From assembly GCA_034509925.1 (NCBI GenBank), contig CM067537.1, positions 3,199,501-3,263,500 of the forward strand: a DNA stretch of 64,000 nt, read 5' to 3'. The notes under the pieces are model-generated. The model did not search any database, had not been told where the DNA came from, and worked only from the letters and a program-made list of their open reading frames with translations. Source of the DNA: Hirudinaria manillensis. Its lineage: Eukaryota; Annelida; Clitellata; Hirudinida; Hirudinidae. Made by a program: the position numbers and the translations under genes. This document shows, piece after piece, positions 39,396-64,000 of this stretch (the stretch's first letter is position 1; the number at the start of each line of letters is the position of its first letter).

Positions 39396-40247
39396 ATGCC
39401 GCGGTACTTGGATGAATTGTACGTGCCTCGATTGAGACGAGAATTGAGATATCGAGGCCTGGATTGGAAAGGCACGAAAGTTGAGATACGAGAGCGACTT
39501 GGGGCATGGCTGACAGAGAATGGCCATGACCCGGAAGAATACGAATTCGAGTCTGAATTTACTGAGTTTCTGAGAAAGTGCACAGAGGAGTGGAGAGAGT
39601 GCATTAGGGGCGATTTGGAAAACACAGCGGTTCCATGTCAGGATGTCTCGTTGGTTTCGGGTAAAAACTCTACTGAGAAGAGTTCTGATGGTTCTTTTGA
39701 GGAGAACAGATTGGTGATTCCATCTTCTGAGCAACTAGGAGTGGAACTCTGCAAAAATGTTCCCAACGAAGAACAAATCATATACGTTGATCCAGACAAA
39801 GTTTCTGGCAGCATTGAGATGGAGTCATTCGAAGACACATCCGACCACAGTGAATGCCTGTCTCCAGAAACTCTGTGTGTGATGGCGGACTCAGAGGACT
39901 TGCCATTGGAGCGCATGGAGTTACCAGATCGGGTCGAGTCGTCAGCAGGGCCCAGAGAAATCAAGGAGGTGTTAGTCGAACAAGTGGAGCCTTCGGAGGA
40001 GCACATGGGTTTGCCGGTGGATCCTGTGGAGTTGTTGATGCAGCCCGAGAAGTTACTGATGAGGCACGTGGAGTTGCCGGTGGAGCGCACGGAGTTTGTA
40101 CTGAAGCGGGTGGACTCTTCCGAGGAGCCCGTACCTTCAACTTTCGCAAACTTCGGTGCGGCCGTACGATACATTTTGCAACATGGCAAGGAAAGGTACA
40201 GAGTGCTGTGTTGTTTCGCTAGAGAGGTAACTGTCGTCGACGACTAA
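39396..40247 (+). CDS. SAP-domain protein with a chimeric C-terminus from the repeat array
   Basis: A 283-codon single-exon ORF. Residues 10-45 form a clear SAP motif (LRRELRYRGLDWKGTKVEIR), a small helix-turn-helix that binds AT-rich DNA. The middle is acidic and Ser-rich. Residues 175-247 contain degenerate short repeats around VELP, VEPSEE and MELP. The last 36 residues or so (from about 40136) are encoded by DNA homologous, on the opposite strand, to the first codons and promoter region of the ALYREF-like repeat unit. The natural C-terminus may therefore have been replaced when the array formed. SAP domains occur in nuclear chromatin and RNA proteins and also at the N-terminus of some retrotransposon gag-like proteins; no protease, RT or zinc knuckle is nearby. 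The start is the first ATG after upstream stops. Confidence 0.65.
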   Translation: MPRYLDELYVPRLRRELRYRGLDWKGTKVEIRERLGAWLTENGHDPEEYEFESEFTEFLRKCTEEWRECIRGDLENTAVPCQDVSLVSGKNSTEKSSDGSFEENRLVIPSSEQLGVELCKNVPNEEQIIYVDPDKVSGSIEMESFEDTSDHSECLSPETLCVMADSEDLPLERMELPDRVESSAGPREIKEVLVEQVEPSEEHMGLPVDPVELLMQPEKLLMRHVELPVERTEFVLKRVDSSEEPVPSTFANFGAAVRYILQHGKERYRVLCCFAREVTVVDD

Positions 40248-40376
40248 ACATTTTGGCAAAGAGATGCTTGATATATAATTTTTTTTCCTATTAATTTTAT
40301 CTGCGAGTATTAAAAAATATTTAAAATGAATTATGTTATTGAATAAATGATTAACACGGCATATTTTTTGCGAGTT
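40134..40376 (-). pseudogene. Left-edge partial unit A: first codons and promoter only
   Basis: Matches the repeat from about codon 13 of the ALYREF-like ORF back through its start (ATG at 40174), 5' UTR, 12-bp palindrome (about 40227-40238) and TATA-like element. The rest of the coding body is absent and is replaced by the antisense of the SAP ORF. It differs from array units at many positions, for example CATGGCAAGG in the leader. Confidence 0.8.
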
Positions 40377-40610
40377 TTTATTAGAGATCGTTTGTAAAGT
40401 TTCTTGTCGATTAACATTGGCCCACTGGCTTATTTTCGCACATGTATTGGTCGATTTCCATGTCGATGCTGGATATATAATTATTTTTCTATTAATTTTT
40501 TCTGCGAGTATTAAAAAAAAATTTTTTTCCCCCATTCCTTTACGTATTAAAAAATATTTAAAAATTATTTATGCTGCTGAATAATTGATTAACACGATAT
40601 ATATTTTTTT
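40377..40610 (-). pseudogene. Left-edge partial unit B with the coding body deleted
   Basis: Contains the polyadenylation signal region and the last codons of the ORF, then jumps at about 40466 from inside codon 176 or so to the TATA region of the same unit type. About 620 bases are missing. The breakpoints share only a GA dinucleotide, suggesting end joining rather than unequal crossing over between units. Confidence 0.8.
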
Positions 40611-40651
40611 GCGAGTTTTTATTAGATATTGTTTGTAAAGTTTCTTGTCGA

Positions 40652-41224
40652 TTAACATTGGCCCACCGGCTTCTTTTCGCACATGTATTGGTCGATTTCC
40701 ATGTCGAGCTGGTCTTTCGTGGGCTTGCTGACTTCCGTTTTCTGCTGTTTTTGCTGCTTCTTGAAGACTCTCGATTTTCTAGTCTTGGGTGGCTGGCGAA
40801 AGGTCTTGTCCGTACGGTCGAACGTTTGTCTTTCCCGCTGCTTGGGCAATGTCTCTGTCCTGTCAGAGACGAACTTCAACCTCATTGGTCTTCCGTCGAG
40901 CGTCATCGCGTTGAACCTTTTCATTGCGCTCGTGGCATCGTTGTGTCTGCAGAAGACGATCTCCCCAGTTCCAGTGCTGGTGCCGTCCTCCTTGTAATAG
41001 ACTGCGGCTTTCCTGACGGCACCGACCGTGCCGAAAAGACATTCGAGATCCTTTCCGGTCACGTTGTAGCGCAGGTTGTCGATGAGAATCCTGCACTTAC
41101 CGTCGTTCGCAAAGGATTTTTTCTCGATGATTTTCCTCCCGTCCATGGCTGGCCTCCTCTTGTCTCTCTTGACAAACGAGTTAGCTTCAACTTTCGTTAA
41201 CTTCGGTGCGGCCGTAGGATACAT
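40652..41224 (-). CDS. ALYREF-like RRM protein, unit 1 (190 aa)
   Basis: The left-most complete unit and the most divergent. It lacks nine bases near the end (no Glu-Pro-Val before GQC) and has Ile instead of Val in RNP1 (GEIVF). The frame is intact. Position and divergence suggest it escapes homogenisation. Confidence 0.88.
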   Translation of the reverse strand: MYPTAAPKLTKVEANSFVKRDKRRPAMDGRKIIEKKSFANDGKCRILIDNLRYNVTGKDLECLFGTVGAVRKAAVYYKEDGTSTGTGEIVFCRHNDATSAMKRFNAMTLDGRPMRLKFVSDRTETLPKQRERQTFDRTDKTFRQPPKTRKSRVFKKQQKQQKTEVSKPTKDQLDMEIDQYMCEKKPVGQC

Positions 41225-41508
41225 TTTGTAACTTGGAAGAACTATGGAAACGTACAGAGTGCTGTGTTGTTTTGCTAGAGAGGTAACTGTCGTCGACGAC
41301 TAAACGTTTTGGCAAAAATGATGCTGGATATATAATTATTTTTCTATTAATTTTTTCTGCTAGTATTAAAAAAAAAATTTTTTTCCCCCCATTCCTTTAC
41401 GTATTAAAAAATATTTAAAAATTATTTATGCTGCTGAATAATTGATTAACACGATATATATTTTTTTGCGAGTTTTTATTAGAGATTGTTTGTAAAGTTT
41501 CTTGTCGA

Positions 41509-42090
41509 TTAACATTGGCCCACTGGCTCGACCGGCTTCTTTTCGCACATGTATTGGTCGATTTCCATGTCGAGCTGGTCTTTCGTGGGCTTGCTGACTT
41601 CCGTTTTCTGCTGTTTTTGCTGCTTCTTGAAGACTCTCGATTTTCTAGTCTTGGGCGGCTGGCGAAAGGTCTTGTCCGTACGGTCGAACGTTTGTCTTTC
41701 CCGCTGCTTGGGCAATGTCTCTGTCCTGTCAGAGACGAACTTCAACCTCATTGGTCTTCCGTCGAGCGTCATCGCGTTGAACCTTTTCATTGCGCTCGTG
41801 GCATCGTTGTGTCTGCAGAAGACGACCTCCCCAGTTCCAGTGCTGGTGCCGTCCTCCTTGTAATAGACTGCGGCTTTCCTGACGGCACCGACCGTGCCGA
41901 AAAGACATTCGAGATCCTTTCCGGTCACGTTGTAGCGCAGGTTGTCGATGAGAATCCTGCACTTACCGTCGTTCGCAAAGGATTTTTTCTCGATGATTTT
42001 CCTCCCGTCCATGGCTGGCCTCTTCTTGTCTCTCTTGACAAACGAGTTAGCTTCAACTTTCGTAAACTTCGGTGCGGCCGTAGGACACAT
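41509..42090 (-). CDS. ALYREF-like RRM protein, unit 2
   Basis: Begins MCPTAAPKF rather than the majority MYPTAAPKL, and has a private Arg-to-Lys change (DKKRP). It shares the Cys2/Phe9 start with units 3 and 4, marking a local sub-family. Confidence 0.88.
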   Translation of the reverse strand: MCPTAAPKFTKVEANSFVKRDKKRPAMDGRKIIEKKSFANDGKCRILIDNLRYNVTGKDLECLFGTVGAVRKAAVYYKEDGTSTGTGEVVFCRHNDATSAMKRFNAMTLDGRPMRLKFVSDRTETLPKQRERQTFDRTDKTFRQPPKTRKSRVFKKQQKQQKTEVSKPTKDQLDMEIDQYMCEKKPVEPVGQC

Positions 42091-42374
42091 TTTGTAACTT
42101 GGAAGAACTATGGAAACGTACAGAGTGCTGTGTTGTTTTGCTAGAGAGGTAACTGTCGTCGACGACTAAACGTCTTGGCAAAAAAGATGCTGGATATATA
42201 ATTATTTTTCTATTAATTTTTTCTGCTAGTATTAAAAAAAAAATTTTTTTCCCCCCATTCCTTTACGTATTAAAAAATATTAAAAAATTATTTATGCTAC
42301 TGAATAATTGATTAACACGATATATATTTTTTTGCGAGTTTTTATTAGAGATTGTTTGTAAAGTTTCTTGTCGA

Positions 42375-42956
42375 TTAACATTGGCCCACTGGCTCGACCG
42401 GCTTCTTTTCGCACATGTATTGGTCGATTTCCATGTCGAGCTGGTCTTTCGTGGGCTTGCTGACTTCCGTTTTCTGCTGTTTTTGCTGCTTCTTGAAGAC
42501 TCTCGATTTTCTAGTCTTGGGCGGCTGGCGAAAGGTCTTGTCCGTACGGTCGAACGTTTGTCTTTCCCGCTGCTTGGGCAATGTCTCTGTCCTGTCAGAG
42601 ACGAACTTCAACCTCATTGGTCTTCCGTCGAGCGTCATCGCGTTGAACCTTTTCATTGCGCTCGTGGCATCGTTGTGTCTGCAGAAGACGACCTCCCCAG
42701 TTCCAGTGCTGGTGCCGTCCTCCTTGTAATAGACTGCGGCTTTCCTGACGGCACCGACCGTGCCGAAAAGACATTCGAGATCCTTTCCGGTCACGTTGTA
42801 GCGCAGGTTGTCGATGAGAATCCTGCACTTACCGTCGTTCGCAAAGGATTTTTTCTCGATGATTTTCCTCCCGTCCATGGCTGGCCTCCTCTTGTCTCTC
42901 TTGACAAACGAGTTAGCTTCAACTTTCGTAAACTTCGGTGCGGCCGTAGGACACAT
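42375..42956 (-). CDS. ALYREF-like RRM protein, unit 3
   Basis: Cys2/Phe9 sub-family; otherwise as the majority protein. Confidence 0.88.
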   Translation of the reverse strand: MCPTAAPKFTKVEANSFVKRDKRRPAMDGRKIIEKKSFANDGKCRILIDNLRYNVTGKDLECLFGTVGAVRKAAVYYKEDGTSTGTGEVVFCRHNDATSAMKRFNAMTLDGRPMRLKFVSDRTETLPKQRERQTFDRTDKTFRQPPKTRKSRVFKKQQKQQKTEVSKPTKDQLDMEIDQYMCEKKPVEPVGQC

Positions 42957-43250
42957 TTTGTAACTTGGAAGAACTATGGAAACGTACAGAGTGCTGTGTT
43001 GTTTTGCTAGAGAGGTAACTGTCGTCGACGACTAAACGTCTTGGCAAAAAAGATGCTGGATATATAATTATTTTTCTATTAATTTTTTCTGCTAGTATTA
43101 AAAAAAAAATTTTTTTCCCCCCATTCCTTTACGTATTAAAAAATATTAAAAAATATTAAAAAATTATTTATGCTACTGAATAATTGATTAACACGATATA
43201 TATTTTTTTGCGAGTTTTTATTAGAGATTGTTTGTAAAGTTTCTTGTCGA

Positions 43251-43832
43251 TTAACATTGGCCCACTGGCTCGACCGGCTTCTTTTCGCACATGTATTGGT
43301 CGATTTCCATGTCGAGCTGGTCTTTCGTGGGCTTGCTGACTTCCGTTTTCTGCTGTTTTTGCTGCTTCTTGAAGACTCTCGATTTTCTAGTCTTGGGCGG
43401 CTGGCGAAAGGTCTTGTCCGTACGGTCGAACGTTTGTCTTTCCCGCTGCTTGGGCAATGTCTCTGTCCTGTCAGAGACGAACTTCAACCTCATTGGTCTT
43501 CCGTCGAGCGTCATCGCGTTGAACCTTTTCATTGCGCTCGTGGCATCGTTGTGTCTGCAGAAGACGACCTCCCCAGTTCCAGTGCTGGTGCCGTCCTCCT
43601 TGTAATAGACTGCGGCTTTCCTGACGGCACCGACCGTGCCGAAAAGACATTCGAGATCCTTTCCGGTCACGTTGTAGCGCAGGTTGTCGATGAGAATCCT
43701 GCACTTACCGTCGTTCGCAAAGGATTTTTTCTCGATGATTTTCCTCCCGTCCATGGCTGGCCTCCTCTTGTCTCTCTTGACAAACGAGTTAGCTTCAACT
43801 TTCGTAAACTTCGGTGCGGCCGTAGGACACAT
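43251..43832 (-). CDS. ALYREF-like RRM protein, unit 4
   Basis: Protein identical to unit 3. The spacer to its left carries an extra TAAAAAATAT motif, making a longer unit. Confidence 0.88.
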   Translation of the reverse strand: MCPTAAPKFTKVEANSFVKRDKRRPAMDGRKIIEKKSFANDGKCRILIDNLRYNVTGKDLECLFGTVGAVRKAAVYYKEDGTSTGTGEVVFCRHNDATSAMKRFNAMTLDGRPMRLKFVSDRTETLPKQRERQTFDRTDKTFRQPPKTRKSRVFKKQQKQQKTEVSKPTKDQLDMEIDQYMCEKKPVEPVGQC

Positions 43833-44125
43833 TTTGTAACTTGGAAGAACTATGGAAACGTACAGAGTGCTGTGTTGTTTTGCTAGAGAGGTAACTGTCG
43901 TCGACGACTAAACGTTTTGGCAAAAATGATGCTGGATATATAATTATTTTTCTATTAATTTTTTCTGCTAGTATTAAAAAAAAATTTTTTTTCCCCCATT
44001 CCTTTACGTATTAAAAAATATTAAAAAATATTTAAAAATTATTTATGCTGCTGAATAATTGATTAACACGATATATATTTTTTTGCGAGTTTTTATTAGA
44101 GATTGTTTGTAAAGTTTCTTGTCGA

Positions 44126-44707
44126 TTAACATTGGCCCACTGGCTCGACCGGCTTCTTTTCGCACATGTATTGGTCGATTTCCATGTCGAGCTGGTCTTT
44201 CGTGGGCTTGCTGACTTCCGTTTTCTGCTGTTTTTGCTGCTTCTTGAAGACTCTCGATTTTCTAGTCTTGGGCGGCTGGCGAAAGGTCTTGTCCGTACGG
44301 TCGAACGTTTGTCTTTCCCGCTGCTTGGGCAATGTCTCTGTCCTGTCAGAGACGAACTTCAACCTCATTGGTCTTCCGTCGAGCGTCATCGCGTTGAACC
44401 TTTTCATTGCGCTCGTGGCATCGTTGTGTCTGCAGAAGACGACCTCCCCAGTTCCAGTGCTGGTGCCGTCCTCCTTGTAATAGACTGCGGCTTTCCTGAC
44501 GGCACCGACCGTGCCGAAAAGACATTCGAGATCCTTTCCGGTCACGTTGTAGCGCAGGTTGTCGATGAGAATCCTGCACTTACCGTCGTTCGCAAAGGAT
44601 TTTTTCTCGATGATTTTCCTCCCGTCCATGGCTGGCCTCCTCTTGTCTCTCTTGACAAACGAGTTAGCTTCAACTTTCGTTAACTTCGGTGCGGCCGTAG
44701 GATACAT
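44126..44707 (-). CDS. ALYREF-like RRM protein, unit 5 (majority form)
   Basis: First unit of the majority Tyr2/Leu9 protein, which units 6, 8-14, 17, 19 and 20 share exactly. Confidence 0.88.
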   Translation of the reverse strand: MYPTAAPKLTKVEANSFVKRDKRRPAMDGRKIIEKKSFANDGKCRILIDNLRYNVTGKDLECLFGTVGAVRKAAVYYKEDGTSTGTGEVVFCRHNDATSAMKRFNAMTLDGRPMRLKFVSDRTETLPKQRERQTFDRTDKTFRQPPKTRKSRVFKKQQKQQKTEVSKPTKDQLDMEIDQYMCEKKPVEPVGQC

Positions 44708-45000
44708 TTTGTAACTTGGAAGAACTATGGAAACGTACAGAGTGCTGTGTTGTTTTGCTAGAGAGGTAACTGTCGTCGACGACTAAACGTTTTGGCAAAA
44801 AAGATGCTGGATATATAATTATTTTTCTATTAATTTTTTCTGCTAGTATTAAAAAAAAATTTTTTTTCCCCCATTCCTTTACGTATTAAAAAATATTAAA
44901 AAATATTTAAAAATTATTTATGCTGCTGAATAATTGATTAACACGATATATATTTTTTTGCGAGTTTTTATTAGAGATTGTTTGTAAAGTTTCTTGTCGA

Positions 45001-45582
45001 TTAACATTGGCCCACTGGCTCGACCGGCTTCTTTTCGCACATGTATTGGTCGATTTCCATGTCGAGCTGGTCTTTCGTGGGCTTGCTGACTTCCGTTTTC
45101 TGCTGTTTTTGCTGCTTCTTGAAGACTCTCGATTTTCTAGTCTTGGGCGGCTGGCGAAAGGTCTTGTCCGTACGGTCGAACGTTTGTCTTTCCCGCTGCT
45201 TGGGCAATGTCTCTGTCCTGTCAGAGACGAACTTCAACCTCATTGGTCTTCCGTCGAGCGTCATCGCGTTGAACCTTTTCATTGCGCTCGTGGCATCGTT
45301 GTGTCTGCAGAAGACGACCTCCCCAGTTCCAGTGCTGGTGCCGTCCTCCTTGTAATAGACTGCGGCTTTCCTGACGGCACCGACCGTGCCGAAAAGACAT
45401 TCGAGATCCTTTCCGGTCACGTTGTAGCGCAGGTTGTCGATGAGAATCCTGCACTTACCGTCGTTCGCAAAGGATTTTTTCTCGATGATTTTCCTCCCGT
45501 CCATGGCTGGCCTCCTCTTGTCTCTCTTGACAAACGAGTTAGCTTCAACTTTCGTTAACTTCGGTGCGGCCGTAGGATACAT
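45001..45582 (-). CDS. ALYREF-like RRM protein, unit 6
   Basis: Majority protein. Confidence 0.88.
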   Translation of the reverse strand: MYPTAAPKLTKVEANSFVKRDKRRPAMDGRKIIEKKSFANDGKCRILIDNLRYNVTGKDLECLFGTVGAVRKAAVYYKEDGTSTGTGEVVFCRHNDATSAMKRFNAMTLDGRPMRLKFVSDRTETLPKQRERQTFDRTDKTFRQPPKTRKSRVFKKQQKQQKTEVSKPTKDQLDMEIDQYMCEKKPVEPVGQC

Positions 45583-45866
45583 TTTGTAACTTGGAAGAAC
45601 TATGGAAACGTACAGAGTGCTGTGTTGTTTTGCTAGAGAGGTAACTGTCGTCGACGACTAAACGTTTTGGCAAAAAAGATGCTGGATATATAATTATTTT
45701 TCTATTAATTTTTTCTGCTAGTATTAAAAAAAAAATTTTTTTCCCCCCATTCCTTTACGTATTAAAAAATATTAAAAAATTATTTATGCTACTGAATAAT
45801 TGATTAACACGATATATATTTTTTTGCGAGTTTTTATTAGAGATTGTTTGTAAAGTTTCTTGTCGA

Positions 45867-46505
45867 TTAACATTGGCCCACTGGCTCGACCGGCTTCTTT
45901 TCGCACATGTATTGGTCGATTTCCATGTCGAGCTGGTCTTTCGTGGGCTTGCTGACTTCCGTTTTCTGCTGTTTTTGCTGCTTCTTGAAGACTCTCGATT
46001 TTCTAGTCTTGGGCGGCTGGCGAAAGGTCTTGTCCGTACGGTCGAACGTTTGTCTTTCCCGCTGCTTGTGCGGCTGGCGAAAGGTCTTGTCCGTACGGTC
46101 GAACGTTTGTCTTTCCCGCTGCTTGGGCAATGTCTCTGTCCTGTCAGAGACGAACTTCAACCTCATTGGTCTTCCGTCGAGCGTCATCGCGTTGAACCTT
46201 TTCATTGCGCTCGTGGCATCGTTGTGTCTGCAGAAGACGACCTCCCCAGTTCCAGTGCTGGTGCCGTCCTCCTTGTAATAGACTGCGGCTTTCCTGACGG
46301 CACCGACCGTGCCGAAAAGACATTCGAGATCCTTTCCGGTCACGTTGTAGCGCAGGTTGTCGATGAGAATCCTGCACTTACCGTCGTTCGCAAAGGATTT
46401 TTTCTCGATGATTTTCCTCCCGTCCATGGCTGGCCTCCTCTTGTCTCTCTTGACAAACGAGTTAGCTTCAACTTTCGTTAACTTCGGTGCGGCCGTAGGA
46501 TACAT
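45867..46505 (-). CDS. ALYREF-like RRM protein, unit 7 (212 aa, internal duplication)
   Basis: Has a 57-bp tandem duplication (about 46015-46130) that adds 19 residues in frame and repeats the QRERQTFDRTDKTFRQP linker between RRM and C-terminal motif. One base at the junction changes Pro to His. The RRM and C-terminal motif are untouched, so function is probably kept. Confidence 0.88.
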   Translation of the reverse strand: MYPTAAPKLTKVEANSFVKRDKRRPAMDGRKIIEKKSFANDGKCRILIDNLRYNVTGKDLECLFGTVGAVRKAAVYYKEDGTSTGTGEVVFCRHNDATSAMKRFNAMTLDGRPMRLKFVSDRTETLPKQRERQTFDRTDKTFRQPHKQRERQTFDRTDKTFRQPPKTRKSRVFKKQQKQQKTEVSKPTKDQLDMEIDQYMCEKKPVEPVGQC

Positions 46506-46766
46506 TTTGTAACTTGGAAGAACTATGGAAACGTACAGAGTGCTGTGTTGTTTTGCTAGAGAGGTAACTGTCGTCGACGACTAAACGTTTTGGCAAAAAA
46601 GATGCTGGATATATAATTATTTTTCTATTAATTTTTTCTGCTAGTATTAAAAAAAAAATTTTTTTTTCCCCCATTCCTTTACGTATTAAAAAATATTAAA
46701 AAATATTTAAAAATTATTTATGCTGCTGAATAATTGATTAACACGATATATATTTTTTTGCGAGTT

Positions 46767-46772
46767 TTTATT
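46767..46772 (-). terminator. AATAAA polyadenylation signal of unit 8, present in every complete unit
   Basis: AATAAA on the minus strand about 30 bases after the TAA stop (46803-46801). The same sequence lies at the same distance in each unit, so each can end its own transcript. Confidence 0.7.
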
Positions 46773-46800
46773 AGAGATTGTTTGTAAAGTTTCTTGTCGA

Positions 46801-47382
46801 TTAACATTGGCCCACTGGCTCGACCGGCTTCTTTTCGCACATGTATTGGTCGATTTCCATGTCGAGCTGGTCTTTCGTGGGCTTGCTGACTTCCGTTTTC
46901 TGCTGTTTTTGCTGCTTCTTGAAGACTCTCGATTTTCTAGTCTTGGGCGGCTGGCGAAAGGTCTTGTCCGTACGGTCGAACGTTTGTCTTTCCCGCTGCT
47001 TGGGCAATGTCTCTGTCCTGTCAGAGACGAACTTCAACCTCATTGGTCTTCCGTCGAGCGTCATCGCGTTGAACCTTTTCATTGCGCTCGTGGCATCGTT
47101 GTGTCTGCAGAAGACGACCTCCCCAGTTCCAGTGCTGGTGCCGTCCTCCTTGTAATAGACTGCGGCTTTCCTGACGGCACCGACCGTGCCGAAAAGACAT
47201 TCGAGATCCTTTCCGGTCACGTTGTAGCGCAGGTTGTCGATGAGAATCCTGCACTTACCGTCGTTCGCAAAGGATTTTTTCTCGATGATTTTCCTCCCGT
47301 CCATGGCTGGCCTCCTCTTGTCTCTCTTGACAAACGAGTTAGCTTCAACTTTCGTTAACTTCGGTGCGGCCGTAGGATACAT
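46801..47382 (-). CDS. ALYREF-like RNA-export adaptor, unit 8 (reference description)
   Basis: 193 residues, no intron. One RRM spans residues 44-121: RNP2 is ILIDNL (46-51) and the divergent RNP1 is GTGEVVFC (85-92). The segments RKAAVYYKEDGTS and LDGRPMRLKFVSD match the RRM of ALYREF/THOC4 (TREX complex, nuclear mRNA export) closely in pattern and order. A basic Gln/Lys linker follows, then DQLDMEIDQYM (171-181), matching the C-terminal helix by which ALYREF-family proteins bind the helicase UAP56/DDX39B. The N-terminal 43 residues lack the second, N-terminal UAP56-binding helix and the Arg/Gly-rich region of ordinary ALYREF (about 250 residues), so this is a short form. The ATG is preceded by a TATA-like element at about -105, and the stop is followed by AATAAA. 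Absence of introns suggests an origin as a retrocopy (inference). Confidence 0.9.
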   Translation of the reverse strand: MYPTAAPKLTKVEANSFVKRDKRRPAMDGRKIIEKKSFANDGKCRILIDNLRYNVTGKDLECLFGTVGAVRKAAVYYKEDGTSTGTGEVVFCRHNDATSAMKRFNAMTLDGRPMRLKFVSDRTETLPKQRERQTFDRTDKTFRQPPKTRKSRVFKKQQKQQKTEVSKPTKDQLDMEIDQYMCEKKPVEPVGQC

Positions 47383-47446
47383 TTTGTAACTTGGAAGAAC
47401 TATGGAAACGTACAGAGTGCTGTGTTGTTTTGCTAGAGAGGTAACT

Positions 47447-47458: not shown

Positions 47459-47484
47459 TAAACGTTTTGGCAAAAAAGATGCTG

Positions 47485-54800: not shown

Positions 54801-54823
54801 GAGATTGTTTGTAAAGTTTCTTG

Positions 54824-56284: not shown

Positions 56285-56579
56285 TTTGTAACTTGGAAGA
56301 ACTATGGAAACGTACAGAGTGCTGTGTTGTTTTGCTAGAGAGGTAACTGTCGTCGACGACTAAACGTTTTGGCAAAAAAGATGCTGGATATATAATTATT
56401 TTTCTATTAATTTTTTCTGCTAGTATTAAAAATAAATTTTTTTTTTCCCCCATTCCTTTACGTATTAAAAAATATTAAAAAATATTTAAAAATTATTTAT
56501 GCTGCTGAATAATTGATTAACACGATATATATTTTTTTGCGAGTTTTTATTAGAGATTGTTTGTAAAGTTTCTTGTCGA

Positions 56580-57161
56580 TTAACATTGGCCCACTGGCTC
56601 GACCGGCTTCTTTTCGCACATGTATTGGTCGATTTCCATGTCGAGCTGGTCTTTCGTGGGCTTGCTGACTTCCGTTTTCTGCTGTTTTTGCTGCTTCTTG
56701 AAGACTCTCGATTTTCTAGTCTTGGGCGGCTGGCGAAAGGTCTTGTCCGTACGGTCGAACGTTTGTCTTTCCCGCTGCTTGGGCAATGTCTCTGTCCTGT
56801 CAGAGACGAACTTCAACCTCATTGGTCTTCCGTCGAGCGTCATCGCGTTGAACCTTTTCATTGCGCTCGTGGCATCGTTGTGTCTGCAGAAGACGACCTC
56901 CCCAGTTCCAGTGCTGGTGCCGTCCTCCTTGTAATAGACTGCGGCTTTCCTGACGGCACCGACCGTGCCGAAAAGACATTCGAGATCCTTTCCGGTCACG
57001 TTGTAGCGCAGGTTGTCGATGAGAATCCTGCACTTACCGTCGTTCGCAAAGGATTTTTTCTCGATGATTTTCCTCCCGTCCATGGCTGGCCTCCTCTTGT
57101 CTCTCTTGACAAACGAGTTAGCTTCAACTTTCGTTAACTTCGGTGCGGCCGTAGGATACAT
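56580..57161 (-). CDS. ALYREF-like RRM protein, unit 17
   Basis: Majority protein. Confidence 0.88.
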   Translation of the reverse strand: MYPTAAPKLTKVEANSFVKRDKRRPAMDGRKIIEKKSFANDGKCRILIDNLRYNVTGKDLECLFGTVGAVRKAAVYYKEDGTSTGTGEVVFCRHNDATSAMKRFNAMTLDGRPMRLKFVSDRTETLPKQRERQTFDRTDKTFRQPPKTRKSRVFKKQQKQQKTEVSKPTKDQLDMEIDQYMCEKKPVEPVGQC

Positions 57162-57456
57162 TTTGTAACTTGGAAGAACTATGGAAACGTACAGAGTGCT
57201 GTGTTGTTTTGCTAGAGAGGTAACTGTCGTCGACGACTAAACGTTTTGGCAAAAAAGATGCTGGATATATAATTATTTTTCTATTAATTTTTTCTGCTAG
57301 TATTAAAAAAAAAATTTTTTTTTCCCCCATTCCTTTACGTATTAAAAAATATTAAAAAATATTTAAAAATTATTTATGCTGCTGAATAATTGATTAACAC
57401 GATATATATTTTTTTGCGAGTTTTTATTAGAGATTGTTTGTAAAGTTTCTTGTCGA

Positions 57457-58039
57457 TTAACATTGGCCCACTGGCTCGACCGGCTTCTTTTCGCACATGT
57501 ATTGGTCGATTTCCATGTCGAGCTGGTCTTTCGTGGGCTTGCTGACTTCCGTTTTCTGCTGTTTTTGCTGCTTCTTGAAGACTCTCGATTTTCTAGTCTT
57601 GGGCGGCTGGCGAAAGGTCTTGTCCGTACGGTCGAACGTTTGTCTTTCCCGCTGCTTGGGCAATGTCTCTGTCCTGTCAGAGACGAACTTCAACCTCATT
57701 GGTCTTCCGTCGAGCGTCATCGCGTTGAACCTTTTCATTGCGCTCGTGGCATCGTTGTGTCTGCAGAAGACGACCTCCCCAGTTCCAGTGCTGGTGCCGT
57801 CCTCCTTGTAATAGACTGCGGCTTTCCTGACGGCACCGACCGTGCCGAAAAGACATTCGAGATCCTTTCCGGTCACGTTGTAGCGCAGGTTGTCGATGAG
57901 AATCCTGCACTTACCGTCGTTCGCAAAGGATTTTTTTCTCGATGATTTTCCTCCCGTCCATGGCTGGCCTCCTCTTGTCTCTCTTGACAAACGAGTTAGC
58001 TTCAACTTTCGTTAACTTCGGTGCGGCCGTAGGATACAT
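57457..58039 (-). pseudogene. ALYREF-like unit 18, frameshift near the N-terminus
   Basis: An extra T in a homopolymer (about 57930-57937, seven T instead of six) shifts the frame between the normal ATG at 58039 and the RRM. An alternative ATG at 58005 is in frame with the RRM and gives 182 residues with a different N-terminus. A homopolymer error in the sequence is equally possible. Confidence 0.75.
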
Positions 58040-58325
58040 TTTGTAACTTGGAAGAACTATGGAAACGTACAGAGTGCTGTGTTGTTTTGCTAGAGAGGTA
58101 ACTGTCGTCGACGACTAAACGTTTTGGCAAAAAAGATGCTGGATATATAATTATTTTTCTATTAATTTTTTCTGCTAGTATTAAAAAAAAAATTTTTTTA
58201 TTTATCCCATTCCTTTACGTATTAAAAAATATTTAAAAATTATTTATGCTGCTGAATAATTGATTAACACGATATATTTTTTTTGCGAGTTTTTATTAGA
58301 GATTGTTTGTAAAGTTTCTTGTCGA

Positions 58326-58907
58326 TTAACATTGGCCCACTGGCTCGACCGGCTTCTTTTCGCACATGTATTGGTCGATTTCCATGTCGAGCTGGTCTTT
58401 CGTGGGCTTGCTGACTTCCGTTTTCTGCTGTTTTTGCTGCTTCTTGAAGACTCTCGATTTTCTAGTCTTGGGCGGCTGGCGAAAGGTCTTGTCCGTACGG
58501 TCGAACGTTTGTCTTTCCCGCTGCTTGGGCAATGTCTCTGTCCTGTCAGAGACGAACTTCAACCTCATTGGTCTTCCGTCGAGCGTCATCGCGTTGAACC
58601 TTTTCATTGCGCTCGTGGCATCGTTGTGTCTGCAGAAGACGACCTCCCCAGTTCCAGTGCTGGTGCCGTCCTCCTTGTAATAGACTGCGGCTTTCCTGAC
58701 GGCACCGACCGTGCCGAAAAGACATTCGAGATCCTTTCCGGTCACGTTGTAGCGCAGGTTGTCGATGAGAATCCTGCACTTACCGTCGTTCGCAAAGGAT
58801 TTTTTCTCGATGATTTTCCTCCCGTCCATGGCTGGCCTCCTCTTGTCTCTTTTGACAAACGAGTTAGCTTCAACTTTCGTTAACTTCGGTGCGGCCGTAG
58901 GATACAT
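58326..58907 (-). CDS. ALYREF-like RRM protein, unit 19
   Basis: Majority protein with one silent Lys codon change near 58850. Confidence 0.88.
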   Translation of the reverse strand: MYPTAAPKLTKVEANSFVKRDKRRPAMDGRKIIEKKSFANDGKCRILIDNLRYNVTGKDLECLFGTVGAVRKAAVYYKEDGTSTGTGEVVFCRHNDATSAMKRFNAMTLDGRPMRLKFVSDRTETLPKQRERQTFDRTDKTFRQPPKTRKSRVFKKQQKQQKTEVSKPTKDQLDMEIDQYMCEKKPVEPVGQC

Positions 58908-59202
58908 TTTGTAACTTGGAAGAACTATGGAAACGTACAGAGTGCTGTGTTGTTTTGCTAGAGAGGTAACTGTCGTCGACGACTAAACGTTTTGGCAAAA
59001 AAGATGCTGGATATATAATTATTTTTCTATTAATTTTTTCTGCTAGTATTAAAAAAAAAAATTTTTTTTTCCCCCATTCCTTTACGTATTAAAAATATTA
59101 AAAAATATTTAAAAATTATTTATGCTGCTGAATAATTGATTAACACGATATATATTTTTTTGCGAGTTTTTATTAGAGATTGTTTGTAAAGTTTCTTGTC
59201 GA

Positions 59203-59784
59203 TTAACATTGGCCCACTGGCTCGACCGGCTTCTTTTCGCACATGTATTGGTCGATTTCCATGTCGAGCTGGTCTTTCGTGGGCTTGCTGACTTCCGTTT
59301 TCTGCTGTTTTTGCTGCTTCTTGAAGACTCTCGATTTTCTAGTCTTGGGCGGCTGGCGAAAGGTCTTGTCCGTACGGTCGAACGTTTGTCTTTCCCGCTG
59401 CTTGGGCAATGTCTCTGTCCTGTCAGAGACGAACTTCAACCTCATTGGTCTTCCGTCGAGCGTCATCGCGTTGAACCTTTTCATTGCGCTCGTGGCATCG
59501 TTGTGTCTGCAGAAGACGACCTCCCCAGTTCCAGTGCTGGTGCCGTCCTCCTTGTAATAGACTGCGGCTTTCCTGACGGCACCGACCGTGCCGAAAAGAC
59601 ATTCGAGATCCTTTCCGGTCACGTTGTAGCGCAGGTTGTCGATGAGAATCCTGCACTTACCGTCGTTCGCAAAGGATTTTTTCTCGATGATTTTCCTCCC
59701 GTCCATGGCTGGCCTCCTCTTGTCTCTCTTGACAAACGAGTTAGCTTCAACTTTCGTTAACTTCGGTGCGGCCGTAGGATACAT
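59203..59784 (-). CDS. ALYREF-like RRM protein, unit 20
   Basis: Majority protein. Confidence 0.88.
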   Translation of the reverse strand: MYPTAAPKLTKVEANSFVKRDKRRPAMDGRKIIEKKSFANDGKCRILIDNLRYNVTGKDLECLFGTVGAVRKAAVYYKEDGTSTGTGEVVFCRHNDATSAMKRFNAMTLDGRPMRLKFVSDRTETLPKQRERQTFDRTDKTFRQPPKTRKSRVFKKQQKQQKTEVSKPTKDQLDMEIDQYMCEKKPVEPVGQC

Positions 59785-59985
59785 TTTGTAACTTGGAAGA
59801 ACTATGGAAACGTACAGAGTGCTGTGTTGTTTTGCTAGAGAGGTAACTGTCGTCGACGACTAAACGTTTTGGCAAAAAAGATGCTGGATATATAATTATT
59901 TTTCTATTAATTTTTTCTGCTAGTATTAAAAAAAAATTTTTTTTCCCCCCATTCCTTTACGTATTAAAAAATATTTAAAAATTAT

Positions 59986-60651
59986 TTATGCTGCTGAATA
60001 ATTGATTAACACGATATATATTTTTTTGCGAGTTTTTATTAGAGATTGTTTGTAAAGTTTCTTGTCGATTAACATTGGGCCCACTGGCTCGACCGGCTTC
60101 TTTTCGCACATGTATTGGTCGATTTCCATGTCGAGCTGGTCTTTCGTGGGCTTGCTGACTTCCGTTTTCTGCTGTTTTTGCTGCTTCTTGAAGACTCTCG
60201 ATTTTCTAGTCTTGGGCGGCTGGCGAAAGGTCTTGTCCGTACGGTCGAACGTTTGTCTTTCCCGCTGCTTGGGCAATGTCTCTGTCCTGTCAGAGACGAA
60301 CTTCAACCTCATTGGTCTTCCGTCGAGCGTCATCGCGTTGAACCTTTTCATTGCGCTCGTGGCATCGTTGTGTCTGCAGAAGACGACCTCCCCAGTTCCA
60401 GTGCTGGTGCCGTCCTCCTTGTAATAGACTGCGGCTTTCCTGACGGCACCGACCGTGCCGAAAAGACATTCGAGATCCTTTCCGGTCACGTTGTAGCGCA
60501 GGTTGTCGATGAGAATCCTGCACTTACCGTCGTTCGCAAAGGATTTTTTCTCGATGATTTTCCTCCCGTCCATGGCTGGCCTCCTCTTGTCTCTCTTGAC
60601 AAACGAGTTAGCTTCAACTTTCGTTAACTTCGGTGCGGCCGTAGGATACAT
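59986..60651 (-). pseudogene. ALYREF-like unit 21, frameshift at the last codons (221 aa)
   Basis: An extra G in TTGGGCCC (about 60076-60081) shifts the frame after EPVG, so reading runs through the normal stop into the 3' UTR for about 30 more residues. The RRM and C-terminal helix are unaffected, so the protein could still work. Confidence 0.78.
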
Positions 60652-60936
60652 TTTGTAACTTGGAAGAACTATGGAAACGTACAGAGTGCTGTGTTGTTTT
60701 GCTAGAGAGGTAACTGTCGTCGACGACTAAACGTTTTGGCAAAAAAGATGCTGGATATATAATTATTTTTCTATTAATTTTTTCTGCTAGTATTAAAAAA
60801 ATTTTTTTTATTTCTCCCATTCCTTTACGTATTAAAAAATATTTAAAAATTATTTATGCTGCTGAATAGTTGATTAACACGATATATATTTTTTTGCGAG
60901 TTTTTATTAGAGATTGTTTGTAAAGTTTCTTGTCGA

Positions 60937-61518
60937 TTAACATTGGCCCACTGGCTCGACCGGCTTCTTTTCGCACATGTATTGGTCGATTTCCATGTCG
61001 AGCTGGTCTTTCGTGGGCTTGCTGACTTCCGTTTTCTGCTGTTTTTGCTGCTTCTTGAAGACTCTCGATTTTCTAGTCTTGGGCGGCTGGCGAAAGGTCT
61101 TGTCCGTACGGTCGAACGTTTGTCTTTCCCGCTGCTTGGGCAATGTCTCTGTCCTGTCAGAGACGAACTTCAACCTCATTGGTCTTCCGTCGAGCGTCAT
61201 CGCGTTGAACCTTTTCATTGCGCTCGTGGCATCGTTGTGTCTGCAGAAGACGACCTCCCCAGTTCCAGTGCTGGTACCGTCCTCCTTGTAATAGACTGTG
61301 GCTTTCCTGACGGCACCGACCGTGCCGAAAAGACATTCGAGATCCTTTCCGGTCACGTTGTAGCGCAGGTTGTCGATGAGAATCCTGCACTTACCGTCGT
61401 TCGCAAAGGATTTTTTCTCGATGATTTTCCTCCCGTCCATGGCTGGCCTCCTCTTGTCTCTCTTGACAAACGAGTTAGCTTCAACTTTCGTTAACTTCGG
61501 TGCGGCCGTAGGATACAT
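60937..61518 (-). CDS. ALYREF-like RRM protein, unit 22
   Basis: Ala74-to-Thr in the RRM (RKATVYY) plus a silent GGT codon; both are shared with unit 23. Confidence 0.88.
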   Translation of the reverse strand: MYPTAAPKLTKVEANSFVKRDKRRPAMDGRKIIEKKSFANDGKCRILIDNLRYNVTGKDLECLFGTVGAVRKATVYYKEDGTSTGTGEVVFCRHNDATSAMKRFNAMTLDGRPMRLKFVSDRTETLPKQRERQTFDRTDKTFRQPPKTRKSRVFKKQQKQQKTEVSKPTKDQLDMEIDQYMCEKKPVEPVGQC

Positions 61519-61803
61519 TTTGTAACTTGGAAGAACTATGGAAACGTACAGAGTGCTGTGTTGTTTTGCTAGAGAGGTAACTGTCGTCGACGACTAAACG
61601 TTTTGGCAAAAAAGATGCTGGATATATAATTATTTTTCTATTAATTTTTTTCTGCTATTATTAAAAAAAAAATTTTTTTCCCCCCATTCCTTTACGTATT
61701 AAAAAATATTTAAAAATTATTTATGCTGCTGAATAATTGATTAACACGATATATATTTTTTTGCGAGTTTTTATTAGAGATTGTTTGTAAAGTTTCTTGT
61801 CGA

Positions 61804-62385
61804 TTAACATTGGCCCACTGGCTCGACCGGCTTCTTTTCGCACATGTATTGGTCGATTTCCATGTCGAGCTGGTCTTTCGTGGGCTTGCTGACTTCCGTT
61901 TTCTGCTGTTTTTGCTGCTTCTTGAAGACTCTCGATTTTCTAGTCTTGGGCGGCTGGCGAAAGGTCTTGTCCGTACGGTCGAACGTTTGTCTTTCCCGCT
62001 GCTTGGGCAATGTCTCTGTCCTGTCAGAGACGAACTTCAACCTCATTGGTCTTCCGTCGAGCGTCATCGCGTTGAACCTTTTCATTGCGCTCGTGGCATC
62101 GTTGTGTCTGCAGAAGACGACCTCCCCAGTTCCAGTGCTGGTACCGTCCTCCTTGTAATAGACTGTGGCTTTCCTGACGGCACCGACCGTGCCGAAAAGA
62201 CATTCGAGATCCTTTCCGGTCACGTTGTAGCGCAGGTTGTCGATGAGAATCCTGCACTTACCGTCGTTCGCAAAGGATTTTTTCTCGATGATTTTCCTCC
62301 CGTCCATGGCTGGCCTCCTCTTGTCTCTCTTGACAAACGAGTTAGCTTCAACTTTCGTTAACTTCGGTGCGGCCGTAGGATACAT
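61804..62385 (-). CDS. ALYREF-like RRM protein, unit 23
   Basis: Same Thr74 variant as unit 22, so one was probably copied from the other. The spacer carries CTATTATT instead of CTAGTATT, as do its neighbours to the right. Confidence 0.88.
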   Translation of the reverse strand: MYPTAAPKLTKVEANSFVKRDKRRPAMDGRKIIEKKSFANDGKCRILIDNLRYNVTGKDLECLFGTVGAVRKATVYYKEDGTSTGTGEVVFCRHNDATSAMKRFNAMTLDGRPMRLKFVSDRTETLPKQRERQTFDRTDKTFRQPPKTRKSRVFKKQQKQQKTEVSKPTKDQLDMEIDQYMCEKKPVEPVGQC

Positions 62386-62669
62386 TTTGTAACTTGGAAG
62401 AACTATGGAAACGTACAGAGTGCTGTGTTGTTTTGCTAGAGAGGTAACTGTCGTCGACGACTAAACGTTTTGGCAAAAAAGATGCTGGATATATAATTAT
62501 TTTTCTATTAATTTTTTTCTGCTATTATTAAAAAAAAATTTTTTTCCCCCCATTCCTTTACGTATTAAAAAATATTTAAAAATTATTTATGCTGCTGAAT
62601 AATTGATTAACACGATATATATTTTTTTGCGAGTTTTTATTAGAGATTGTTTGTAAAGTTTCTTGTCGA

Positions 62670-63251
62670 TTAACATTGGCCCACTGGCTCGACCGGCTTC
62701 TTTTCGCACATGTATTGGTCGATTTCCATGTCGAGCTGGTCTTTCGTGGGCTTGCTGACTTCCGTTTTCTGCTGTTTTTGCTGCTTCTTGAAGACTCTCG
62801 ATTTTCTAGTCTTGGGCGGCTGGCGAAAGGTCTTGTCCGTACGGTCGAACGTTTGTCTTTCCCGCTGCTTGGGCAATGTCTCTGTCCTGTCAGAGACGAA
62901 CTTCAACCTCATTGGTCTTCCGTCGAGCGTCATCGCGTTGAACCTTTTCATTGCGCTCGTGGCATCGTTGTGTCTGCAGAAGACGACCTCCCCAGTTCCA
63001 GTGCTGGTGCCGTCCTCCTTGTAATAGACTGCGGCTTTCCTGACGGCACCGACCGTGCCGAAAAGACATTCGAGATCCTTTCCGGTCACGTTGTAGCGCA
63101 GGTTGTCGATGAGAATCCTGCACTTACCGTCGTTCGCAAAGGATTTTTTCTCGATGATTTTCCTCCCGACCATGGCTGGCCTCCTCTTGTCTCTCTTGAC
63201 AAACGAGTTAGCTTCAACTTTCGTTAACTTCGGTGCGGCCGTAGGATACAT
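62670..63251 (-). CDS. ALYREF-like RRM protein, unit 24
   Basis: Private Asp28-to-Val change (AMVGRK) in the N-terminal tail; otherwise the majority protein. Confidence 0.88.
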   Translation of the reverse strand: MYPTAAPKLTKVEANSFVKRDKRRPAMVGRKIIEKKSFANDGKCRILIDNLRYNVTGKDLECLFGTVGAVRKAAVYYKEDGTSTGTGEVVFCRHNDATSAMKRFNAMTLDGRPMRLKFVSDRTETLPKQRERQTFDRTDKTFRQPPKTRKSRVFKKQQKQQKTEVSKPTKDQLDMEIDQYMCEKKPVEPVGQC

Positions 63252-63534
63252 TTTGTAACTTGGAAGAACTATGGAAACGTACAGAGTGCTGTGTTGTTTT
63301 GCTAGAGAGGTAACTGTCGTCGACGACTAAACGTTTTGGCAAAAAAGATGCTGGATATATAATTATTTTTCTATTAATTTTTTCTGCTATTATTAAAAAA
63401 AAAAATTTTTACACACCATTCCTTTACGTATTAAAAAATATTTAAAAATTATTTATGCTGCTGAATAATTGATTAACACGATATATATTTTTTGCGAGTT
63501 TTTATTAGAGATTGTTTGTAAAGTTTCTTGTCGA

Positions 63535-64000
63535 TTAACATTGGCCCACTGGCTCGACCGGCTTCTTTTCGCACATGTATTGGTCGATTTCCATGTCGAG
63601 CTGGTCTTTCGTGGGCTTGCTGACTTCCGTTTTCTGCTGTTTTTGCTGCTTCTTGAAGACTCTCGATTTTCTAGTCTTGGGCGGCTGGCGAAAGGTCTTG
63701 TCCGTACGGTCGAACGTTTGTCTTTCCCGCTGCTTGGGCAATGTCTCTGTCCTGTCAGAGACGAACTTCAACCTCATTGGTCTTCCGTCGAGCGTCATCG
63801 CGTTGAACCTTTTCATTGCGCTCGTGGCATCGTTGTGTCTGCAGAAGACGACCTCCCCAGTTCCAGTGCTGGTACCGTCCTCCTTGTAATAGACTGCGGC
63901 TTTCCTGACGGCACCGACCGTGCCGAAAAGACATTCGAGATCCTTTCCGGTCACGTTGTAGCGCAGGTTGTCGATGAGAATCCTGCACTTACCGTCGTTC
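63535..64000 (-). CDS. ALYREF-like RRM protein, unit 25, cut by the window end
   Basis: The C-terminal 155 or so codons are present, ending at the normal stop. The frame is open at the window edge, so the start lies beyond 64000. It shares the silent GGT codon of units 22 and 23 but not their Thr74. Confidence 0.88.
   Translation of the reverse strand, partial: NDGKCRILIDNLRYNVTGKDLECLFGTVGAVRKAAVYYKEDGTSTGTGEVVFCRHNDATSAMKRFNAMTLDGRPMRLKFVSDRTETLPKQRERQTFDRTDKTFRQPPKTRKSRVFKKQQKQQKTEVSKPTKDQLDMEIDQYMCEKKPVEPVGQC

What the first reader, a model, noticed from the sequence alone, without database searches (positions are those of the whole stretch)
40134..64000. A coding satellite: at least 25 near-identical tandem ALYREF-like genes
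An mRNA-export adaptor gene is amplified head to tail with a period of about 870 bp, with 21 intact frames inside the window and more beyond it. The interior units are almost identical in protein and nearly so in spacer. ALYREF is normally present in one or a few dispersed copies, and tandem arrays of this kind are known mainly for rRNA, 5S, histone and snRNA genes. It could meet a need for high dosage, act as satellite DNA that happens to code, or be a selfish amplification.
Basis: partly seen in the sequence, partly recalled or inferred. Interest (0 to 1): 0.92.

Follow-up and report, generated by a model that had tools for sequence, protein, structure and literature searches.

The report
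Leech array of ALYREF-like genes
A leech chromosome carries a long head-to-tail row of almost identical, intron-free copies of a gene related to an mRNA-export factor, and a second repeated RNA-binding gene cluster on another chromosome shares its unusual upstream sequence, so the repeats look more like working genes than like junk, although their activity is untested.

Summary
The window lies in a leech genome (Hirudinaria manillensis by assembly statistics). Its minus strand holds 24 complete units of about 866-876 bp, 21 with an intact frame; the array runs 17 kb further, to 44 complete units, 37 intact. Each unit is a compact intron-free gene: upstream element, 193-codon frame, AATAAA. The protein has an ALYREF-type RRM and a C-terminal UAP56-binding-type motif, but lacks the N-terminal one, RG repeats, WxHD and the EJC arginine finger. 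ALYREF-type genes with split frames and the N-terminal motif lie elsewhere, so this looks like a retrogene-derived side family, not amplified ALYREF itself. A 15-base upstream pattern occurs 62 times in 148 Mb: 43 in this array, 14 in a second tandem array (C5, poly-RRM genes), 1 before another family member. The public protein set holds multi-member relatives of both proteins. dN/dS against the closest dispersed copy is 0.29; among array copies it is indistinguishable from 1. Best reading: a coding macrosatellite kept alike by concerted evolution, supplying in bulk an EJC-blind, UAP56-binding RNA-binding protein. Expression is untested. Closest known case: the primate ELOA3 retrogene array.

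The parts
39396..40247 (+). ORF with a weak SAP-domain match; residues 1-247 belong to a dispersed mobile-element-like ORF, the tail (about 40137-40247) runs antisense through a fragment of an array unit. Left boundary of the array, not part of the gene unit
   Evidence: (below Pfam's cut-off)
40132..40616 (-). Degenerate and rearranged fragments of array units (pieces 83-98% identical), left edge
   Evidence: blastn
40617..52859 (-). Units U01-U14, 14 of 14 with intact frames (U01 190 aa, U07 212 aa with the in-frame 57-bp duplication, the other 12 of 193 aa)
42340..43215 (-). Unit U03, used as the reference unit
42375..42956 (-). Coding sequence of U03: 193-aa ALYREF-like protein P0001, RRM about residues 45-120, C-terminal UAP56-binding-type motif LDMEIDQY
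43045..43059 (-). Upstream element CCAGCATCTTTTTTG of U03; in the array consensus it lies 102 bases before the ATG. Pattern nearly private to this gene family and the C5 array
42341..42346 (-). AATAAA polyadenylation signal of U03, about 30 bases after the stop codon; AATAAA found at the 3' end of 44 of 44 units
45832..46765 (-). Unit U07 with the in-frame 57-bp duplication (212 aa)
52860..54790 (-). Decayed block: remains of two old units, 72-77% identical, frames with many stops, one copy of the upstream element still intact (54599-54613)
54791..63499 (-). Units U15-U24; frame intact in 7 of 10 (U15, U18 and U21 carry one-base homopolymer frameshifts)
63500..64000 (-). Part of U25 that lies in the window; the array continues to C12:3280747 (L008, L009), units U25-U44 plus a truncated unit

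Best explanation
A coding macrosatellite. An ALYREF-type transcript was once reverse-transcribed into an intron-free gene (inferred: the members read here are single open frames, while the RRM of the canonical genes is split over separate frames). That ancestor founded a family, most of whose members still show one upstream element. One member, on C12, became a tandem array, 44 complete units in this assembly; each unit carries its own upstream region, frame and polyadenylation signal, and unequal exchange and gene conversion keep the units alike. The protein keeps an ALYREF-type RRM, a strongly basic surround and a C-terminal UAP56-binding-type motif, but has lost the parts by which ALYREF contacts the exon junction complex (WxHD, arginine finger) and its N-terminal UAP56 motif and RG repeats. 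The most likely role is an RNA-binding adaptor or mRNP-packaging protein, made in large amounts, that can engage UAP56 on RNA without needing splicing marks, expressed together with the poly-RRM proteins of the second array (C5) through the shared element, probably in germ line or early embryo. Shown: anatomy, copy number in the assembly, lost and kept motifs, near-private shared element, multi-member relatives in the public protein set, long-term constraint. Inferred: retro-origin, binding properties, co-expression, tissue, dosage purpose.
For: 44 complete units, 37 intact. RRM_1 and FoP_duplication by Pfam; ALYREF structures at ranks 1, 2, 5 and 7, 42-43% identity. Motif audit: C-terminal LDMEIDQY present, compare LDEQLDNY and LDAQLDAY in the C6 and C3 genes; no SLDDI, no RG, no Trp, Thr where human ALYREF has Arg144 (Arg kept in the C6, C3 and C5 genes; roles of these parts from passages of PMC7614608). 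Upstream pattern YCAGYATCTTTTTWG: 62 hits genome-wide against 3 for the reversed control; 43 in this array (42 of 44 units and 1 in the decayed block), 14 in the C5 array, 1 before C11c; near the 4 remaining hits no family frame was found in about 1.85 kb downstream. Public protein set: P0003 (63% identical, 17 member sequences, 1 contig listed) and poly-RRM P0009 (63%, 5 members, 1 contig listed). Array versus C2 copy dN/dS 0.29, pS/pN contrast p=2e-9; array branch alone about 0.53, p=0.047. Neighbouring units slightly more alike than random (p 0.02-0.03 at lag 1).
Against: No expression data. Among array copies substitutions show no purifying selection (3 synonymous, 10 nonsynonymous, pN/pS 0.87, p=0.74). 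7 of 44 copies are frameshifted and of the 9 indel events seen in frames only 2 keep the frame, although all seven frameshifts are one-base homopolymer changes that could be sequencing errors. The protein may not bind UAP56 or RNA at all. C11 relatives lack the C-terminal motif, so UAP56 binding is not the family's common denominator. The upstream element is weak in C2 and C11b and absent at that place in C9. The RRM-only tree does not resolve whether the C5 poly-RRM genes descend from ALYREF, and their best solved-structure match is nucleolin. In the PDB list for the array protein the first row is a PABP, by the sum of its four RRMs, ahead of ALYREF.
Confidence: 0.52

Rival explanations
1. 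Passive coding satellite: one or a few copies matter, the rest were amplified by replication and exchange errors and persist because homogenisation keeps re-copying an intact frame. No dosage role.
For: pN/pS among copies 0.87, not different from 1, and 7 of 44 frames broken; the density of substitution variants in the frame (13 in 582 bases) is not significantly lower than in the upstream/5' UTR part (5 in 129; p=0.35).
Against: Few variable sites, so the test is weak. The public protein set has a 17-member cluster of the related protein; two arrays share a nearly private upstream element; 37 of 44 frames are intact while the one old block is decayed throughout.
Confidence: 0.25
2. Selfish or conflict array of the Stellate type: copies are amplified by drive and held silent by small RNAs from homologous sequence.
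For: Tandem near-identical coding units derived from a conserved regulator are also the anatomy of Stellate (passages of PMC7874207); the nearest multi-member relative is only 63% identical; loss of several functional parts of ALYREF would suit a poison version.
Against: No suppressor locus was looked for, and no small-RNA data were at hand; long-term constraint, dN/dS 0.29; multi-member relatives of both proteins in the public set argue for long persistence.
Confidence: 0.12
3. The units matter as RNA or DNA (piRNA source, structural satellite) and the reading frame is incidental.
For: Satellite-like organisation; no Rfam family matched in 38000-64000, which neither supports nor excludes it.
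Against: RRM match, dN/dS 0.29 against C2, frame kept in 37 of 44 units, AATAAA at the 3' end of 44 of 44.
Confidence: 0.07
4. Assembly artefact: a short array inflated by mis-assembly.
For: Array of 41 kb is longer than usual single HiFi reads (recalled); the right end stops abruptly inside a unit.
Against: No N in the 94 kb around it; units carry individual variants; the matching published assembly used PacBio HiFi and had contig N50 9.58 Mb (passages); a 17-member cluster of the related protein in the public set.
Confidence: 0.04

Closest known systems
ELOA3 gene cluster of primates (PMC10664989; abstract and passages seen)
   Same: Tandem array of intronless retrogenes made from a general gene-expression factor; concerted evolution with lineage-specific homogenised versions; most frames intact (93% there, 37 of 44 here); degraded copies at the edges; multi-exon parent kept elsewhere.
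   Different: Here the source is ALYREF and the animal a leech; the unit is under 0.9 kb, whereas the ELOA3 unit also holds four mobile-element pieces; the seven frameshifted copies lie inside the array, not at its edge; a second array on another chromosome shares the upstream element; expression and function are shown for ELOA3, not here; concerted evolution is shown there, only suggested here.
ALYREF/REF family (human ALYREF; leech ALYREF-type genes on C6, C3, C5)
   Same: RRM sequence and predicted fold, basic tail, C-terminal UAP56-binding-type motif.
   Different: No N-terminal UAP56 motif, no RG repeats, no WxHD, Thr in place of the EJC arginine finger, single open frame.
Stellate array of Drosophila (PMC7874207; abstract and passages seen)
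   Same: Tandem protein-coding repeats derived from a conserved regulator gene.
   Different: Stellate is tied to a Y-linked suppressor and piRNA silencing; nothing of the kind has been shown or tested here.
USP17/RS447 and other human coding macrosatellites (PMC2874809 and PMC3018141; search listing with start of abstract only)
   Same: Gene family inside a tandemly repeated sequence.
   Different: Unrelated genes; other unit sizes (recalled, not checked).

Membership tests
ALYREF/REF mRNA-export adaptor | ALYREF-type RRM | tested here: met
   Pfam RRM_1 E=1.8e-11; ALYREF chains at ranks 1, 2, 5 and 7 of the Foldseek list; ALYREF/THO subunit 4 follows one PABP row in the PDB sequence list. 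The RRM tree only sets two PABP rows apart from all others and is unrooted, so it adds little
ALYREF/REF mRNA-export adaptor | C-terminal UAP56-binding motif | tested here: met
   LDMEIDQY in the array protein, compared with LDEQLDNY (C6) and LDAQLDAY (C3); resemblance only, binding not tested
ALYREF/REF mRNA-export adaptor | N-terminal UAP56-binding motif (SLDDII) and RG-rich RNA-binding regions | tested here: not met
   0 SLDDI and 0 RG in the array protein; SLDDII present in the C6, C3 and C5 genes, RG-rich stretches in those of C6 and C3
ALYREF/REF mRNA-export adaptor | WxHD and Arg144 contacts with the exon junction complex | tested here: not met
   no Trp in the protein, Thr at the Arg144 position (contacts from passages of PMC7614608)
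ALYREF/REF mRNA-export adaptor | binds UAP56, NXF1 and RNA and promotes export | not testable with these tools
   needs biochemistry
Tandem retrogene macrosatellite (ELOA3 type) | near-identical head-to-tail coding units | tested here: met
   44 units, mean pairwise substitution divergence 0.64%
Tandem retrogene macrosatellite (ELOA3 type) | intronless units, intron-containing parent elsewhere | tested here: met
   one open frame per intact unit; in the C6 and C3 genes the RRM lies on separate frames, read as exons. Exon borders were not confirmed by transcripts, and which of the three genes is the parent is unknown
Tandem retrogene macrosatellite (ELOA3 type) | concerted evolution between species | tested here: inconclusive
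   P0003 stands for 17 sequences clustered at 90% identity but is 63% identical to this array; independent amplification not excluded, its place relative to the array and C2 is unresolved
Tandem retrogene macrosatellite (ELOA3 type) | transcribed and translated copies | not testable with these tools
   no RNA or protein data on hand
Stellate-type conflict array | homologous suppressor locus making piRNAs | not tested
   no small-RNA data

The most novel reading that the evidence does not exclude
Leeches run a dedicated bulk mRNP system: two unlinked coding satellites, one of single-RRM ALYREF-like genes with a UAP56 hook and one of poly-RRM genes (the one frame read in full holds 12 RRMs that are 95-100% identical), are switched on together by one private promoter element, and package or export transcripts independently of splicing marks at a stage that needs huge amounts, such as oogenesis or the early embryo.
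Probability: 0.25. Interest if true: 0.85.

Novelty: new variant of a known kind. Interest (0 to 1): 0.66.

Why it matters
The best described tandem array of retrogenes for a gene-expression factor that I found is ELOA3 of primates. A leech array of ALYREF-like genes, with a second RNA-binding array that carries the same upstream element and multi-member relatives in the public protein set, would show that general RNA factors can be turned into high-copy arrays in an unrelated animal. It also offers a natural separation of ALYREF functions: RRM and a UAP56-type motif kept, exon-junction contacts lost. And the nearly private upstream element makes co-regulation of two coding satellites directly testable with leech RNA-seq.

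Tried and rejected
Assembly artefact: rejected as main explanation (no gaps, unit variants, HiFi-based published assembly, 17-member cluster in the public protein set), but exact copy number stays open.

Amplification of the canonical ALYREF gene: rejected, ALYREF-type genes with the missing motifs lie elsewhere.

SAP-domain ORF beside the array as a TREX partner (SARNP/THO1 idea, recalled): rejected, it is part of a dispersed mobile-element-like ORF with at least 219 matches in the genome (the tool says such counts are lower bounds).

Upstream element as a general leech core-promoter motif: rejected for the exact pattern (62 hits in 148 Mb, 58 of them at the array, the C5 array or C11c). A looser form was not counted genome-wide. 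Whether it is an initiator, a 3' splice site or a binding site is undecided. A TATA box: TATATATC occurs in 44 of 44 units, but the first occurrence lies 236 bases before the ATG, near the polyadenylation signal of the neighbour unit, and a second lies directly before the element (sequence); neither was tested as a promoter.

Non-coding RNA: no Rfam match at gathering score in 38000-64000.

Higher-order pattern of units: only a weak effect of neighbourhood (permutation p below 0.05 at lags 1-4 and 10, above at lags 5-9). One search printed far too many columns because of a mistake in my column filter; its lag figures are superseded.

Literature: leech + ALYREF gave 1 paper, unrelated; ALYREF + tandem array + gene copies gave 0; Hirudinaria manillensis + tandem + gene copies gave 2, whose titles concern hirudins/decorsins and comparative leech genomes. 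Searches returned 720, 5,000, 1,422 and 31 papers, of which 15, 15, 10 and 12 were listed; nothing on this array was among the listed rows.

Corrections made on checking: the C5 flank was cut 11 bases short of the ATG, so the distance printed there (86) is 97.
Full report
Where it is. The window is C12:3199501-3263500 of a 148.4-Mb, 23-contig genome. A partial Pfam Hirudin match (C4, 33.9 bits, over the cut-off of 25, with a stop in the frame; 0 of 14 control genomes) points to a leech; TTAGGG repeats near both ends of C1 and at inner places are compatible but not diagnostic. Contig sizes (C1 14,755,599 and C12 9,582,500; C6 11,463,318) fit the figures printed for the Hirudinaria manillensis assembly built from PacBio HiFi reads (longest scaffold 14.76 Mb, scaffold N50 11.46 Mb, contig N50 9.58 Mb; passages of PMC10671345). 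The totals differ slightly (148.43 Mb here, 148.59 Mb printed). The species is therefore inferred, not given.

The array. blastn with one unit finds complete minus-strand units back to back from 40617 to 80861 on the joined sequence (window plus 30 kb of the same contig), with a decayed block at 52860-54790 and a last unit cut after 386 bases. That is 44 complete units, 24 of them wholly in the window. Frames: 37 of 44 intact, 21 of 24 in the window. The seven broken ones (U15, U18, U21, U28, U37, U38, U42) each differ by one base in a homopolymer, and no two share the change, so sequencing error is possible; they lie inside the array. Two further indels in frames keep the frame (57-bp duplication in U07, 9-bp deletion in U01). 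Mean pairwise substitution divergence is 0.64%, range 0 to 1.6%. Substitution variants by region: 21 in the 120 bases of AT-rich linker (partly an effect of aligning homopolymers), 5 in the 129 bases of the upstream/5' UTR part, 13 in the 582 bases of the frame, 5 in the 35 bases after the stop; the linker contrast with the frame is significant (p=2e-9), the upstream one is not (p=0.35). Units close together are a little more alike than random pairs (permutation p 0.02-0.03 at lag 1, below 0.05 at lags 2-4 and 10, not at 5-9), as expected from unequal exchange.

The unit as a gene. On the minus strand each unit has the upstream region, a 193-codon frame starting at unit position 250, and AATAAA at the 3' end in 44 of 44 units. 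The transcription start is unknown. No Rfam family reaches its gathering score in 38000-64000.

The protein. Consensus 193 aa, pI 9.9, charge about +17.6. Pfam: RRM_1 (1.8e-11) and FoP_duplication (2e-8). In the PDB sequence list a PABP comes first through the sum of its RRMs, then ALYREF/THO complex subunit 4 and ALY rows. The AlphaFold2 model is confident only in the RRM (block means 82-91 over residues 41-120), with a C-terminal helix at 170-182 of low confidence (about 62; overall pLDDT 66.8, 7 sequences in the alignment); Foldseek puts ALYREF RRMs at ranks 1, 2, 5 and 7. The motif audit finds the C-terminal UAP56-type motif LDMEIDQY, no SLDDI, no RG, no Trp (hence no WxHD) and Thr at the Arg144 position. 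Passages of PMC7614608 describe these parts in human ALYREF: UBMs bind UAP56; WxHD and the RRM with Arg144 contact the exon junction complex.

Family in the genome. A human ALYREF piece finds two places, on C6 and C3, with 67 and 62% identity over part of the RRM, and another on C5. Frames there show SLDDII at the N terminus in all three, Arg at the Arg144 position in all three, RG-rich stretches on C6 and C3, C-terminal motifs LDEQLDNY and LDAQLDAY on C6 and C3, and an RRM divided over separate frames, which I read as exons. Intron-free relatives: C2 (61% identical to the array), C11a and C11b (93% to each other), C11c, C9, and a possibly split or decayed copy at C12:3334277-3334660. Two searches of the public protein set gave 6 relatives from unnamed sources. 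Five pair with dispersed members here or fall near them: P0005 with C11a/b (70 and 68%), P0006 with C11c (69%), P0007 and P0008 with C9 (79 and 81%), P0004 nearest to C2 (56%); P0005 and P0006 are both listed with a contig of 95,870 bases, as C11a and C11c are neighbours here. P0003 (64% to the array, 62% to C2) stands for 17 member sequences with 1 contig of 3.58 Mb listed.

The second array. The P0001 search also listed dozens of RRM hits at C5:5591754-5629721 in frames of 438-1599 aa; by their frame lengths and spacing I count 14 frames (a capped list). One frame was read in full: 12 RRMs, 95-100% identical to one another over 76 residues (L058). A relative in the public set, P0009 (63%, 690 aa, 5 member sequences, 1 contig of 3.43 Mb listed), has 5 RRMs 97-100% identical to each other but only 83-84% identical to the second RRM of the L058 frame. 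So repeats are alike within each genome and differ between them, the mark of concerted evolution or of separate amplification. Its descent from ALYREF is not clear: the best PDB match of one RRM is nucleolin, ALY comes at E 7e-4, and in the RRM tree the position is unresolved.

The shared element. Aligning 5' flanks showed YCAGYATCTTTTTTGC-like sequence 97-118 bases before the ATG in the array, C11a, C11c and the C5 gene (each better than all 500 mononucleotide shuffles of its flank; the array by construction, since the pattern was taken from it), a weaker form at the same place in C2 and C11b (p 0.10 and 0.12) and none there in C9 (C5 distance corrected). The exact pattern YCAGYATCTTTTTWG has 62 hits in the genome, the reversed control 3: 43 in the C12 array (42 of 44 units and one in the decayed block), 14 on C5, 1 before C11c, 4 elsewhere. 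None of those 4 shows a family frame in about 1.85 kb downstream (best tblastn E 0.44). The pattern was chosen after seeing the array and C5 flanks, so its presence there is by construction; what is informative is that almost no other place has it and that the 14 C5 hits each lie 140-171 bases before the first listed RRM of the 14 frames. Since the two proteins differ far more than the element does, common control is the simplest reading; common descent of the flank alone is the alternative.

Selection. Array consensus against C2: dS 0.84, dN 0.245, ratio 0.29 (Fisher on proportions p=2e-9). With C11a as outgroup, the array branch has 14 synonymous and 30 nonsynonymous assigned changes (ratio about 0.53, p=0.047), the C2 branch 17 and 25 (0.36, p=0.001); the outgroup is near saturation and sites where it differs from both were dropped, so these are rough. 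Within the array 3 synonymous and 10 nonsynonymous variants give 0.87, not different from 1. So the family was constrained over the long run; recent variation among copies shows no constraint, which is what weak selection on each of many redundant copies, or none, would give. The decayed block (two units with many stops, 72-77% identical) shows what unselected units turn into.

Left edge. P0002 (39396-40247) has a SAP match below Pfam's cut-off. Residues 1-247 match a dispersed ORF with 219 matches, many of 385 aa at the same score: a mobile element by its spread, broken off where it meets an array fragment.

Explanation. The best-supported account is a functional coding macrosatellite: retro-origin, tandem amplification, homogenisation, each unit a complete gene from upstream element to poly(A) signal, product an RNA-binding protein that could hook UAP56 without the exon junction complex, co-controlled with a second array. 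Expression, tissue and biochemistry are inference. The passive-satellite rival is real, because recent variation is unconstrained.

Known relatives. ELOA3 (abstract and passages of PMC10664989) is close as a genomic object: tandem intronless retrogenes, concerted evolution, 93% intact frames, edge decay, modest purifying selection. Stellate (abstract and passages of PMC7874207) is the conflict-type comparison. Hence 'new variant of a known kind': the kind (retrogene arrays) is known; ALYREF as the source, the second array with the shared element, and the poly-RRM partner did not come up in the rows listed by the searches, most of which were capped lists.

Noticed in passing
C5:5591754-5629721 (L058 holds 5602300-5607300): Second coding satellite: 14 tandem frames of 438-1599 aa by the listed hits, the one read in full made of 12 RRMs 95-100% identical, each frame preceded by the same upstream element as the window's array; a relative with 5 member sequences in the public protein set.
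   Followed up: partly
window 39396-40247 and genome-wide: SAP-like ORF with at least 219 matches in the genome, many 385-aa copies of the same score: an apparently young mobile element family; its SAP match is below Pfam's cut-off.
   Followed up: partly
C6:7816623-7830599: Five or six further tandem RRM frames of 292-348 aa, a possible third RNA-binding cluster.
   Followed up: no
C4:444051-445511, 525880-533462, 623165-642739: Clusters of RRM frames of about 520-675 aa, perhaps PABP-like copies (guess).
   Followed up: no
C11:3131908-3133869 and C11:2633266: Two divergent intron-free family members side by side and a 93% identical copy of one of them half a megabase away, all three without the C-terminal UAP56-type motif.
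   Followed up: partly
window 18924-20582: Single-frame carboxylesterase-family ORF of 552 aa (COesterase, 4e-147).
   Followed up: no
window 8267-9487: Reverse transcriptase ORF (RVT_1), probably of a non-LTR element.
   Followed up: no
C12:3334277-3334660 (L045): Another ALYREF-like piece about 54 kb beyond the array on the same strand, 41% identical, with a stop in the match: relic or intron-split copy.
   Followed up: partly
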